From a virus, in IMG/VR virus record IMGVR_UViG_3300033149_004402, positions 1 to 32,109 of that record: a DNA stretch of 32,109 nt; one strand, given 5' to 3'. A model generated the notes under the pieces. That model searched no databases and was not told where the DNA came from. It saw nothing but the letters and a program-made list of their open reading frames with translations. Positions 18,733 to 25,715 of this stretch are shown here, piece after piece. The translations under genes were made by a program, and so were the position numbers. Each line of letters opens with the position of its first letter. The first letter of the stretch is position 1.

Positions 18733-20943
18733 ATGCTGAAGGACTATATCAGCTTCGACCAGTATCTCGGCTTCAACCTGAAGCTGTCGGACTACCAGCT
18801 TCCGCCGGGATACGGGCGGCAGTGCGTCAACCTGTGGCCGATGTTCACGCACCTTGAACTGCGCAAGGGCGTGACGAAGCTGAACTCGACGGAATGGTCG
18901 GACGGCGCGGCCACGGGAGCGACCCGCTACTACCAGCGCGACGGCAGCAAGGAAACCGTCGTCCACGTCGGAAGCGTCCTCAACAAGGTGGACGACGACA
19001 CCGGCGACCTGACGCCGCTTTCGTATTACGACAACCACCCCGACTGGTCGGCCTACGCCTACATAGAGAACGGCAGCGCGTTGCTTACAAACCTTCCGGG
19101 CTATTTCACGCACCTCGGACCGGGCAAGACGGGGCCGGTTCCCCAGGTCGGCGATACGGTTATCATATCGTATCCGAGAACCAATCCGACAACGACGGAG
19201 ACTTTCGTCCTCACGTCGACATGGGATGATGGCGTTCGCGGGACGATTACGCTTCCCTCCGCGTGGACGGGTCCCACGACGAGCGGCGGCTGCCGGGTGA
19301 GGCTGTGCCGGAAGTGGACGAGCGGCGCGGAGACGCATTTCGAGACGTTCCAGGACGACCTCTTCGCCACCAACGGCTACGACACGCCGCTGCGCTACGA
19401 CGGGACGACCTGCTTCGACCTCGGATACAGGACGCCCCCGGCGGTGACGCTCTCGAAGTCGGGCAGCGGGTCGTTCTCCGGCACCTATCGCTACTGGGTG
19501 GCCTTCGTCTATCCCAACGGCGACGGGCCGCTCAGCCCCTACGCGGCAATCACGGTGTCCAACCACGCCAAGGTGACGGTCAATCTCCCCTACGGCCCGC
19601 CCTTCGCCACGGGGCGGAAGATATACCGTTCCACGAAGGGCGGCGGGGTGCCGAAGTTCCTCGCAAGCATCGACGACGCCACGAGCACCTATTACTACGA
19701 CGACAACGCCACGGCCGACGGCGACCTGGGCGCGAGCGACTATCGCAGCGGCCTCAAGTCGGCCATCCGCAAGGCGCGATACGTGCGGGCCTACGGCAAC
19801 CGCCTTTTCCTCGCCGCCGACGGCTACCGCAACCAGGTGGACGTGAGCGAGTGGGGGGAGCCCGACGCCTACTCAAGCACCACGAACCCAACGCTCATCT
19901 CCGACGACGATGGGGATGTCATCACGGCGCTGTGGGTCTACCAGGGGAAGCTCTACGTCTTCAAGCGGCGGGCGATATTCTGGATCGAGTCCGACGGGTC
20001 GTGGGGAGACGTGACCCACAAGGCGGGCACGGTGTCGCAGTTGAGCATCGCCGAGACGCCGTGGGGACTGATGTTCCTCGGGATGGACGGCCTCTACGTC
20101 TTCAACGGCTACGACGCGCGCAAGGTCAGCGGGCCGATGGACCCGATGATGGGCGAGGCGGTCGGGCGCGATTGCGACGGGACGGGACCGCCGACCGGCG
20201 TGCCGACGGGAACGGGGACGGGGACGGGGACGGGGACGGGAACCGGAACCGGGACCGGGAGCGGGTCGGGCAGTGGCAGCGGTTCGGGTTCGGGGAGCGG
20301 TTCCGGGTCCGGGAGCGGCAGCGGGTCGGGTTCCGGCTCCGGCAGTGGAAGCGGGTCGGGCACCGGCAGCGGTTCGGGGAGCGCAACGGGCACCGGAACC
20401 GGGACGGGGACGGGAAGCAGCACGGGGACCGGAACGGGAGATGGTACCGGCACCGGAACAGGAGACGGTACCGGCACTGGAACAGGAGATGGCACGGGCA
20501 CCGGAACGGGAGACGGTACCGGCACAGGTCCGTCCGCAACGGGCAGCGGCGCATCGGGGACGGGTTCAGGTGCATCGGCAAGCGGTTCCGGCAGCGGGTC
20601 GGGTTCCGGCAGCGGCTCTGGGTCCGGGTCGGGTTCTAGCTCAGGCACAGGCAGCGGGTCGGGCTCTGGAAGCACTTCGGGCAGCGCGAGTGGTTCGGGC
20701 GCATCGGCAAGCGGCTCAGGCGCGTGGGACCCCTGTTGCAGCGAGGTCATCTGCCTGCACGGATTCGGCCCCTTCCCTTACAGCAAGGACTGCTCGGACG
20801 ACCCCGACTGCTCCGGTTACAGCGGTTTGTGCTATTACAACACCGGCCAACAGTGTTCGGGCGAGAAGGACCCGGAGGATTGTTGCGCGGATTCGGACGA
20901 TTTCTACTACACATACAGCCACAACGACTGCGCCGCGCCGTAG
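18733..20943 (+). CDS. Tail beta-propeller protein, N-terminal part, fused to Gly-Thr/Gly-Ser and Cys-rich domains
   Basis: Predicted 736-residue protein. Residues 1-476 look like the first two thirds of a stopper/tail beta-propeller: '[13 protein letters not shown]', a fibronectin-like '[20 protein letters not shown]', '[18 protein letters not shown]', '[20 protein letters not shown]' and '[20 protein letters not shown]' are successive blade strands. The propeller then breaks off. Residues 483-664 are almost entirely alternating Gly with Thr or Ser. Residues 665-736 hold ten Cys, including two CC pairs, and many Asp and Tyr. The propeller's apparent final part is the separate gene at 25708-26298. 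The C-terminal domains may form a glycosylated, disulfide- or metal-stabilised receptor-binding appendage. Confidence 0.75.
20179..20724 (+). repeat. Coding low-complexity Gly-Thr/Gly-Ser repeat
   Basis: About 180 codons of period-6 GGN-ACN or GGN-TCN/AGY sequence, arranged as blocks: Thr block, long Ser block, Thr block with Asp, then Ser/Ala block. The first part, 20208-20240, is an almost exact GGGGAC repeat with six G tracts, prone to slippage and G-quadruplex folding. Most of the rest uses varied synonymous codons, which points to selection on the protein. The opposite strand shows a long Pro/Val reading frame, which is only the shadow of this repeat. Confidence 0.9.
20431..20526 (+). 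repeat. Four imperfect 24-bp tandem repeats
   Basis: Units at 20431-20454, 20455-20478, 20479-20502 and 20503-20526 all encode GTGDGTGT with small synonymous differences. They sit inside the Thr block of the low-complexity region and are the only place where Asp appears regularly. Recent unit duplication is the simplest origin. Confidence 0.85.
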
Positions 20944-20968
20944 AAACAGAAAACGATGAGGGTCAAGG

Positions 20969-21364
20969 ATGCGTGACTACAAGCTCTGTCCGGGAAGAGA
21001 GGTGCGCGGCCTGGATAAGGCTGGGAGGGAGATAGCGCTGTGCACCGCTGTCGTGAAGCATATCGGCTTCCCCCACATGGTGAGCGAGGGCGTCTGCAAG
21101 CGCTGTGCCGAGAGCGGCCCCCCGGACCCCCGCAATCCGTACTTCCGCGAGTTCTGCGTCGGTCAGTTGCGCGTGCGCCTCTGGTGCCCGGAACGGCATG
21201 ACAAGGATTATCCCGCCGAGATAACCCGCGAGGCGGCCTTCACGAAGCTGGCCCGAAGGTTCCTGGGGCGCGAGGAGGCCAAGGACGTGCTGCGCGAGGC
21301 GGCCAGGCGCGGGCTGAACCCCGACCGGCTGGCGGCAATGGCGGAGACCGAAGGCATAGCGTGA
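20969..21364 (+). CDS. Hypothetical Cys-containing protein
   Basis: Predicted 131-residue protein from ATG 20969 after GAGGGTCAAGG. The first 70 residues have spaced Cys (for example 'YKLCPGREVRG', 'ALCTAV', 'VCKRCAE', 'EFCVGQ', 'LWCPERH'), which could bind one or two zinc ions. The second half is a helical pair with 'REEAKDVLREAARRG'. It is the first gene after the propeller break and overlaps the next gene (GTGA). No family recognised. Confidence 0.6.
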   Translation: MRDYKLCPGREVRGLDKAGREIALCTAVVKHIGFPHMVSEGVCKRCAESGPPDPRNPYFREFCVGQLRVRLWCPERHDKDYPAEITREAAFTKLARRFLGREEAKDVLREAARRGLNPDRLAAMAETEGIA

Positions 21365-24389: not shown

Positions 24390-24428
24390 TTCCACCGAAG
24401 CATGAATATTGAAGTGGGAGGGGGCGCA

Positions 24429-25715
24429 GTGAGGGTCTGTCTTGTCAATCCGCCGCATCCGTACCTGACGCACCCGGACGCGCAGCCGCCGCTGGGACTT
24501 CTTTACGTCGCGGCGGCGGCCAGGGAGGTCGGGCACGAGGTCGTTCTTGCGAACCTGTCCCGGCACGACGAGGGGGATGCTCTCAAGCACATTCCGCAGG
24601 CCGACCTCTACGGCTTCACGGCGACGAGCATCGACTACGCCGTGTGCGGGCGGATAGCCCTGCGGCTCAAGGAGGAGCGCCCCGGCGCGGTCTGCGTGCT
24701 GGGAGGGCCTCACGCGGTCGTCCGGCAATACATAGACTTCCGCGTGTGGGACGCTGCCTGTCTCGGCGAAGGGGAGGCAGCGATAGTGCGCATGTGCGAG
24801 GACGCCGAGCGCGGCGAGCTCAAGGCGCTGTACAGCCTTCCCCGCGCGACCGACCTCGACGGCCTGCCCTATCCGGCCCGCGACCTGATGGACGTGCACG
24901 GCGGCGCGATATTCGGCGATGGCCGGCAATACGCCGACGCGCCCTCCACGGTGATATCGTCTTCCCGGGGGTGCCCTTTCCGGTGCGCCTTCTGCGCCTC
25001 GCAGGCGATGTGGGGGCGGCGCGTGGAGCGCCGTTCGCCCCTGAGCGTCGCGCGGGAGGTCAAGCGCGTGGTGAAGGAGTTCGGGATACGCCTCTTCCGC
25101 TTCAGCGACGAGACGTTCAATCTCGACAGGCGGTGGCTTGCGGCGCTCTGCCGCCTCATCGAGCCGCTGGGCGTCTTCTGGCGGTGCAGCATCCGCGCGG
25201 GACTGTCCCTGGCGGACGACTTCAAGCGCATGTACGACGCCGGGTGCAGGGACGTATCGATAGGGTTGGAAAGCGGCGACCAGAGCGTGCTCAACCGGAT
25301 GCGCAAGGGCACGACGGTCCCGCAGACCCGCGACGCGGCGAACCTCGCTATGGAGGCGGGCATTACGGCGCGGCTCCTCATCATGGCCGGATGTCCCGGC
25401 GAGACCAAGACGACGCCCGAAATGACCCGCGCCTTCCTCAAGAGCACAAACTTCGGCGTCGTGAGCATGACGCAGTTCCGCCCCCTGCCGGGAAGCGAAA
25501 TATGGGAGTGGCCGGAGCGGTTCGGGTGCCGCATCCTCGACCGGGACTTCTCCAACTACAACGTCCAGACGTGGGTGCGGGGAGAGGACGGACCCGCCCC
25601 CGCGCCGGTCCGGTCGGTCATAGAGACGGACGAGATGCGCAGGGAGGACCTGGAGGACAACATCCGCCGAACGCGGGCCTACGCGCTTGAAACAGGAAAG
25701 ATGAACCGTGGTTGA
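24429..25715 (+). CDS. Radical SAM enzyme with B12-binding-like N-domain
   Basis: Predicted 428-residue protein from GTG 24429 (GGGAGGGG at 24415-24422; ATG 24402 is an alternative). The N-terminal domain ('VCLVNPPHP', 'QPPLGLLYVAAAAREVGHEV', 'VLGGPHAVV') has the B12-binding Rossmann fold of this class, but no DxHxxG cobalamin-ligand motif is visible. The radical SAM core has 'RGCPFRCAFCAS' with Cys182, Cys186 and Cys189 binding the iron-sulfur cluster, plus 'FSDETFNLD' and 'SIGLESGDQSVLNRMRKG'. Likely methylates or rearranges an unactivated carbon. The substrate is unknown; neighbours suggest a glycan, lipid or peptide. Its end overlaps the next gene. Confidence 0.85.
   Translation: MRVCLVNPPHPYLTHPDAQPPLGLLYVAAAAREVGHEVVLANLSRHDEGDALKHIPQADLYGFTATSIDYAVCGRIALRLKEERPGAVCVLGGPHAVVRQYIDFRVWDAACLGEGEAAIVRMCEDAERGELKALYSLPRATDLDGLPYPARDLMDVHGGAIFGDGRQYADAPSTVISSSRGCPFRCAFCASQAMWGRRVERRSPLSVAREVKRVVKEFGIRLFRFSDETFNLDRRWLAALCRLIEPLGVFWRCSIRAGLSLADDFKRMYDAGCRDVSIGLESGDQSVLNRMRKGTTVPQTRDAANLAMEAGITARLLIMAGCPGETKTTPEMTRAFLKSTNFGVVSMTQFRPLPGSEIWEWPERFGCRILDRDFSNYNVQTWVRGEDGPAPAPVRSVIETDEMRREDLEDNIRRTRAYALETGKMNRG

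What the first reader, a model, noticed from the sequence alone, without database searches (positions are those of the whole stretch)
20179..25715. Possible self-glycosylation module: a mucin-like tail repeat next to its own glycosyltransferases
The sequence shows about 180 residues in which nearly every second one is Thr or Ser, on a tail protein. They are followed within 1 kb by a glycosyltransferase whose first domain has the DxH motif of polypeptide GalNAc-transferases, then by another transferase, a methyltransferase and a radical SAM enzyme. Known mucin-type O-glycosylation acts on exactly such Ser/Thr-rich linkers. I infer that the phage may glycosylate its own tail appendage, with the first cassette (three GT-A, one GT-B and a sulfotransferase-like enzyme) extending or capping the glycan. 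I know of no described phage system of this build.
Basis: partly seen in the sequence, partly recalled or inferred. Interest (0 to 1): 0.85.

Follow-up and report, generated by a model that had tools for sequence, protein, structure and literature searches.

The report
Sugar-enzyme cassette inside split tail gene
In an uncultured short-tailed phage, a block of sugar-modifying enzymes sits inside the gene for the tail nozzle, whose broken-off first half ends in a long glycine-serine/threonine tail; the phage may coat its own tail with sugar, but the repeat is an ordinary-looking flexible linker and its glycosylation is unproven.

Summary
In detail: residues 486-664 of the 18733-20943 protein alternate Gly with Ser/Thr (43% Gly, 28% Ser, 19% Thr), and enzyme genes follow. 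Two corrections. (1) The repeat is not mucin-like (2% Pro) but a Gly-Ser/Thr linker. [quoted passage not shown] the missing C-terminal part is the separate ORF 25708-26298. The reported interval is thus a ~5.5 kb block nested inside the nozzle gene: repeat, Cys-rich end, two small Cys-containing proteins, a glycosyltransferase (GT1), a possible second transferase, a methyltransferase and a B12-radical-SAM enzyme.
Cassette 1 is unrelated to the repeat: a GT-B gene beside the adaptor is widespread in the lineage (36 contigs), and none of 70 complete relative nozzles has a repeat. None of 50 viral records with such repeats has a GT2 domain. Comparable cassettes and glycosylated virions are known in mycobacteriophages.
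No relative carrying GT1 was found, so repeat-GT1 co-occurrence is untestable. Self-glycosylation stays open (0.25-0.3); the split nozzle with nested cassette is the better-supported novelty.

The parts
18733..20163 (+). Tail nozzle, N-terminal part (platform start and first beta-propeller blades), residues 1-477
   Evidence: PHROG 511 (457-677/862, E 3e-7) and 8040 (E 1e-8); nozzle HMM from 51 relatives E 7e-8; aligns to intact nozzle of L010 residues 162-292
20188..20724 (+). Gly-Ser/Thr repeat, 179 aa, in frame with the nozzle N-part
20725..20943 (+). Cys-rich C-terminal end (72 aa, 10 Cys) of the same ORF
   Evidence: no Pfam family
20969..21364 (+). Small protein, 131 aa, 6 Cys, unknown
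21361..21591 (+). Small zinc-ribbon-like protein, DUF6171 / phrog_13558
   Evidence: PF19668 E 1.1e-6; phrog_13558 E 1e-11
21585..23225 (+). GT1: glycosyltransferase, GT2-type domain with DxH (D117-H119) plus a second domain that looks GT-A-like by eye
   Evidence: PF00535 E 1.8e-12; motif positions; second domain has no family match
23213..24019 (+). Possible second transferase (by eye only)
   Evidence: no profile match
23892..24389 (+). SAM methyltransferase
   Evidence: PF13489 E 3e-5; phrog_32762 E 1e-6
24402..25715 (+). B12-binding radical SAM enzyme
   Evidence: PF04055 E 5e-21, PF02310 E 2e-11; BchE/HpnJ-like in NCBIfam, below cut-off
25708..26298 (+). Tail nozzle, C-terminal part as a separate ORF (GTG start, AGGAAAG upstream, overlaps the radical SAM stop)
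   Evidence: phrog_5107 367-463/533 E 1.8e-5, the profile that the intact nozzle of L010 matches at 1.6e-14; aligns to L010 nozzle 299-370; first of 434 window segments with two C-part queries
10021..15348 (+). Cassette 1: methyltransferase, GT2, GT2, sulfotransferase-like, GT2, GT-B, between major capsid protein and adaptor
   Evidence: GT-B conserved in place in relatives
8603..9520 (+). Major capsid protein, SU10 type
   Evidence: PF17236 E 5e-76
15296..15949 (+). Head-tail adaptor, SU10 type
   Evidence: PF24175 E 2e-22

Best explanation
The interval is a cassette of about 5.5 kb nested inside the tail-nozzle gene of an SU10-like short-tailed phage. The nozzle is probably made as two chains: an N-chain whose open end, at a linker between two propeller blades, runs on into a 179-residue Gly-Ser/Thr tether with a Cys-rich end, and a 196-residue C-chain that completes the propeller and platform. 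Enzymes encoded between the two chains would be made with the tail proteins and most likely build a methylated glycan on virion protein; the Gly-Ser/Thr tether is the nearest candidate acceptor. Shown: repeat, enzyme families, nesting and its place in the fold (by alignment to a relative's model). Inferred: two-chain assembly, virion as target, the repeat as acceptor.
For: N-part and C-part match consecutive stretches of one intact nozzle (L010 162-292 and 299-370) and of nozzle-family profiles. In each of two searches the C-part ranks first of 434 window segments. Gene order after 25708 looks like that after the intact L010 nozzle, by reading. A relative's nozzle model (pLDDT 92) matches solved nozzle/hub proteins of Pa223, VP1, SU10 and P22; by alignment the split maps to a helical linker between blades. 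Several frames overlap within the block and into the C-part, so it reads as one operon. GC3 of the enzyme genes (0.79-0.87) resembles the structural genes (0.85-0.89), unlike cassette 1 (0.69). GT1 has DxH, no Asp in the xED position and a C-terminal His, as in polypeptide O-glycosyltransferases (PMC7185993). Phage-made virion glycans are established in mycobacteriophages.
Against: One genome only; no relative with GT1 or with the repeat. Pairwise similarity of the C-part to intact nozzles is weak (blastp 0.003; 9 of 500 shuffles reach the L010 score). Gly-Ser/Thr linkers occur in many phage proteins without transferases. No acceptor, donor or product is known. The DxH assignment rests on motifs, not on a profile match. 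An assembly chimera cannot be excluded without reads.
Confidence: 0.5

Rival explanations
1. The repeat is only a flexible tether that presents the Cys-rich end from the nozzle; the nested enzymes act on another virion protein (capsid, or the fibre-like proteins at 16208-18511).
For: Composition is that of a flexible linker. Viral records with the same alternation have no GT2 domain (0 of 50). GT cassettes in relatives occur with repeat-free nozzles. Known virion glycans sit on capsid and tail-tube subunits.
Against: Repeat and enzymes form one nested block; GT1 carries the DxH motif typical of peptide Ser/Thr transferases.
Confidence: 0.35
2. The cassettes modify host surface polysaccharide (receptor change, superinfection exclusion), as GtrB-type phage enzymes do, and their place among tail genes is incidental.
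For: GT2, methyltransferase, sulfotransferase and B12-radical SAM enzymes are also common in bacterial glycan loci; GT1 has a weak GtrB-like PHROG hit, E 0.0015.
Against: They sit in the virion-gene block, partly with overlapping frames; GTs next to the adaptor are conserved across the lineage, which suggests a virion function. No flippase or polymerase was recognised.
Confidence: 0.15
3. The nozzle was disrupted by a recent insertion or by mis-assembly, and the arrangement has no function.
For: Single metagenomic contig; essential gene split; no close relative.
Against: All reading frames are open, borders are seamless in coding terms, GC3 is uniform, no repeats flank the block beyond one 11-bp inverted match, the repeat keeps its protein pattern with scrambled codons, and the C-part has its own start site.
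Confidence: 0.08
4. 25708-26298 is not nozzle but an unrelated small tail protein, and the window's nozzle simply lost its C-terminal half.
For: Weak pairwise identity (18-23%); the full-family nozzle HMM does not pick it up.
Against: PHROG match at the right profile positions, first-ranked of 434 segments in two tests, contiguous coordinates.
Confidence: 0.08

Closest known systems
Cluster J mycobacteriophages (Omega, Thibault, LittleE): GT/methyltransferase genes between major capsid and head-tail connector genes (PMC3706429)
   Same: Several GTs plus methyltransferases inserted among virion genes at the same place as cassette 1; Omega gp16 has two GT catalytic domains, as GT1 may
   Different: Not nested inside a tail gene; no Gly-Ser/Thr tail described there; siphovirus morphology
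Virion O-glycosylation in mycobacteriophages (Freeman et al. 2023, cited in PMC11652166 and PMC12619734)
   Same: Phage-made glycans on virion proteins, the proposed function here
   Different: Shown by experiment there; acceptors are capsid and tail-tube subunits, not a nozzle repeat
SU10 nozzle gp17 / P22 gp10 tail hub family
   Same: Fold of the relative's model, gene order after the adaptor, sequence profiles
   Different: Here split into two ORFs with a nested cassette; in SU10 extra domains are inserted in one chain between blades 2 and 3 (PMC9509320)
Polypeptide GalNAc-transferases (GT27) and GT60
   Same: DxH in place of DxD, no Asp in the xED position, C-terminal His
   Different: No profile or PDB sequence match, no lectin domain, acceptor not Pro/Thr/Ser-rich

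Membership tests
GT27 polypeptide GalNAc-transferase (for GT1) | DxH metal motif in place of DxD | tested here: met
   D117-A-H119 in the first GT-A domain, at about the DxD place
GT27 polypeptide GalNAc-transferase (for GT1) | Sequence similarity to known GalNAc-transferases | tested here: not met
   no GalNAc-transferase among PDB chains up to E 10; best NCBIfam match is MftF, 38 bits, far under its cut-off
GT27 polypeptide GalNAc-transferase (for GT1) | C-terminal ricin-type lectin domain | tested here: not met
   no such Pfam domain in GT1
GT27 polypeptide GalNAc-transferase (for GT1) | Retaining transfer of GalNAc to Ser/Thr | not testable with these tools
   needs an enzyme assay; single-sequence model was useless (pLDDT 36)
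Mucin-type (PTS) domain (for the repeat) | Pro/Thr/Ser-rich, Gly-poor | tested here: not met
   Pro 2%, Gly 43%
Tail nozzle / P22 gp10-like hub | Sequence profile match | tested here: met
   N-part and C-part both match nozzle-family profiles
Tail nozzle / P22 gp10-like hub | Propeller-platform fold | tested here: inconclusive
   shown for the relative L030, not for the window chains themselves
Tail nozzle / P22 gp10-like hub | One continuous polypeptide | tested here: not met
   stop at 20943, C-part restarts at 25708; no Rfam intron
Phage virion-glycosylation module | GT genes within the virion-gene block | tested here: met
Phage virion-glycosylation module | Glycan detected on virion protein and lost without the GT | not testable with these tools
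   uncultured phage
GT-repeat functional pair | Co-occurrence across relatives | tested here: inconclusive
   cassette 1 GT-B occurs without the repeat; for GT1 no relative was found

The most novel reading that the evidence does not exclude
A glycosylation cassette nested in an essential tail gene carries its own acceptor: the split nozzle's N-chain ends in a Gly-Ser/Thr tail that the cassette's DxH polypeptide O-glycosyltransferase decorates with a methylated glycan, giving a sugar-coated, two-chain tail tip encoded as one operon.
Probability: 0.25. Interest if true: 0.85.

Novelty: new variant of a known kind. Interest (0 to 1): 0.55.

Why it matters
If the split nozzle works as two chains, it shows that a genome-delivery hub, normally one polypeptide, can be opened at a blade junction and used as a mounting point. 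If the tail is glycosylated, it would be a compact enzyme-acceptor pair on a phage tail and a possible source of a bacterial-type polypeptide O-glycosyltransferase. Even without that, the survey shows that glycosyltransferase genes beside the adaptor gene are a standing feature of this widespread phage lineage, which makes virion glycosylation testable in cultured relatives.

Tried and rejected
Single-protein scans with the nozzle-containing protein, GT1 and MCP found no relatives; alignment queries were needed. AlphaFold of GT1 without relatives was useless (pLDDT 36). Intron hypothesis: no Rfam match in 19800-26400 even at E 0.5. Mobile-element borders: no direct repeats of 8 bp or more, one 11-bp inverted match, taken as chance. 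DNA-slippage origin of the repeat: rejected, silent sites are scrambled as at random. GT27 by sequence: rejected at profile level. Co-occurrence of such repeats with GT2 in viruses: 0 of 50; many of those repeats lie in short or possibly spurious frames, so the effective number is smaller. DUF6171 neighbours in cyanophages: near fibre genes, not informative. An HMM of the full nozzle family did not pick up the C-part by itself. My terminase C-part alignment used the wrong frame and is not used.
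Full report
What was checked. The ORF 18733-20943 has 736 residues; residues 486-664 are the repeat, with 84 Ser/Thr in 179, mostly every second residue, the others mainly Gly. All four Gly, all six Ser and all four Thr codons are used, and repeat content at DNA level is what random synonymous choice gives, so the amino-acid pattern is what is maintained. It is a Gly-Ser/Thr linker rather than a mucin-like domain: Pro is 2%.

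What kind of virus. The record is a 32,109-base virus contig. Its capsid protein and adaptor belong to the SU10 type; the capsid is about 35% identical to those of LUZ24-like and Pelagibacter phages. An alignment search brought 80 relatives; further searches with the GT-B and nozzle alignments brought 90 more loci, some of contigs already held.

The repeat sits on a broken nozzle. The part before the repeat matches nozzle and head-closure profiles and an HMM built from 51 relatives' nozzles (E 7e-8). Relatives' nozzles run on for another 200 residues or so where the window has the repeat. The ORF 25708-26298 supplies what is missing. It matches PHROG 5107 at positions 367-463 of 533 (E 1.8e-5); that family is labelled amidase, but the intact nozzle of L010 matches the same profile at 1.6e-14, and L010 is itself found by the nozzle HMM built without it at 1e-15. 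Against the L010 nozzle, the window's N-part ends at residue 292 and the C-part begins at 299. With C-part queries from L010 or from L007/L012/L019, 25705-26295 ranks first of 434 window segments, although at weak E-values. Pairwise shuffles are only moderately convincing alone (9 of 500); the case rests on profile match, rank, contiguity and gene order together. Both parts lie in the same frame, which has a one-in-three chance.

Where the split falls. A model of the L030 nozzle (28% identical to the N-part, 22%) built on 33 sequences has mean pLDDT 92 and matches solved nozzles and hubs: Pa223, VP1, SU10, P22 gp10. The window's N-part aligns up to about residue 268, at the start of a helical linker (270-285) between two blades; my blade count, fifth and sixth, is by hand. 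In SU10 extra domains enter the propeller between blades 2 and 3 (PMC9509320), so propeller junctions in this family accept insertions.

The nested genes. 20969-21364 and 21361-21591 are small Cys-containing proteins, the second a DUF6171 zinc-ribbon-like protein. GT1 has a GT2-type domain. Its second half looks like another GT-A domain (EHDVEV) but has no profile match. 23213-24019 looks GT-A-like by eye only. Then come a methyltransferase and a B12-radical SAM enzyme. From 21361 on, most neighbouring genes overlap, and the C-part start overlaps the radical SAM stop with AGGAAAG upstream. The enzyme genes share the structural genes' high GC3, unlike cassette 1.

Is GT1 a peptide O-glycosyltransferase? 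It has DxH, a GEP in the xED region (no catalytic Asp) and a His in the C-terminal region. A GT-A survey reports DxH as the replacement confined to GT27 and GT60, both polypeptide Ser/Thr enzymes, while C-His is shared widely (PMC7185993). Against this, no GalNAc-transferase appears among solved structures up to E 10 and there is no lectin domain. I read this as compatible, not as membership.

The co-occurrence test. For cassette 1 they do not: a GT-B homologue lies within about 60 bases of the adaptor gene, or overlaps it, in 36 distinct contigs. Other relatives have a small GT-A-like gene, GT11, GT9 or FkbM genes between capsid and adaptor. None of 70 complete nozzles has a repeat. L246 and L247 carry a two-domain GT2, a methyltransferase, a possible deacetylase and GT-B among the virion genes; L247's nozzle is intact. 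Conversely, 50 viral records with such repeats had no GT2 domain. For GT1 no relative exists in what was searched, so nothing can be said.

Known ground. GT and methyltransferase genes between capsid and connector genes are described in cluster J mycobacteriophages, where their targets were left open (PMC3706429). Mycobacteriophage capsid and tail-tube subunits carry glycans that shield against antibodies (reported in PMC12619734 and PMC11652166; the original paper is not held). So glycosylating the virion is known; the nesting in a split nozzle with a Gly-Ser/Thr tail is, as far as I could check, not described.

Verdict. Split nozzle with nested cassette: about 0.9. Nested enzymes acting on the virion: about 0.5-0.6. 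The repeat being the acceptor: about 0.25-0.3. These are judgements, not computed values.

Noticed in passing
window 1810-4181: The large terminase also looks split: ATPase-like part in 1810-2544 (by eye, weak phrog_9), nuclease part in the ORF 3237-4181 (Terminase_3C E 4e-5), with about 0.7 kb of small ORFs between. A second packaging/tail gene split at a domain boundary in the same genome.
   Followed up: partly
window 21361-21591 and 21585-23225: The zinc-ribbon protein and GT1 share the N-terminal sequence FREELRSLART (72.7% over 11 aligned residues), perhaps a docking peptide or a copied gene start.
   Followed up: no
PHROG 5107: The family labelled amidase is matched by a tail nozzle protein (L010 nozzle E 1.6e-14); the label is probably wrong for this group.
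   Followed up: partly
L025 4532-5230: A GT11 (fucosyltransferase-type) gene lies between capsid protein and adaptor (Pfam E 2e-26); a protein with a similar start lies at L051 10992-11693.
   Followed up: partly
L246 7264-10888, L247 7107-10693: Phages with a different capsid protein carry a two-domain GT2, methyltransferase, deacetylase-like protein and GT-B; in L247 these lie directly before adaptor and nozzle, in L246 the adaptor-like gene is about 9 kb further on.
   Followed up: partly
window 7187-7336: tRNA-Thr (TGT) and tRNA-Trp genes lie just before 7426-8559, the gene upstream of the capsid gene; the repeat uses mostly ACG/ACC, so a link to its Thr content is not evident.
   Followed up: no
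window 20725-20943: The Cys-rich end (10 Cys in 72 aa) after the repeat matches no Pfam family and no phage record by tblastn.
   Followed up: partly
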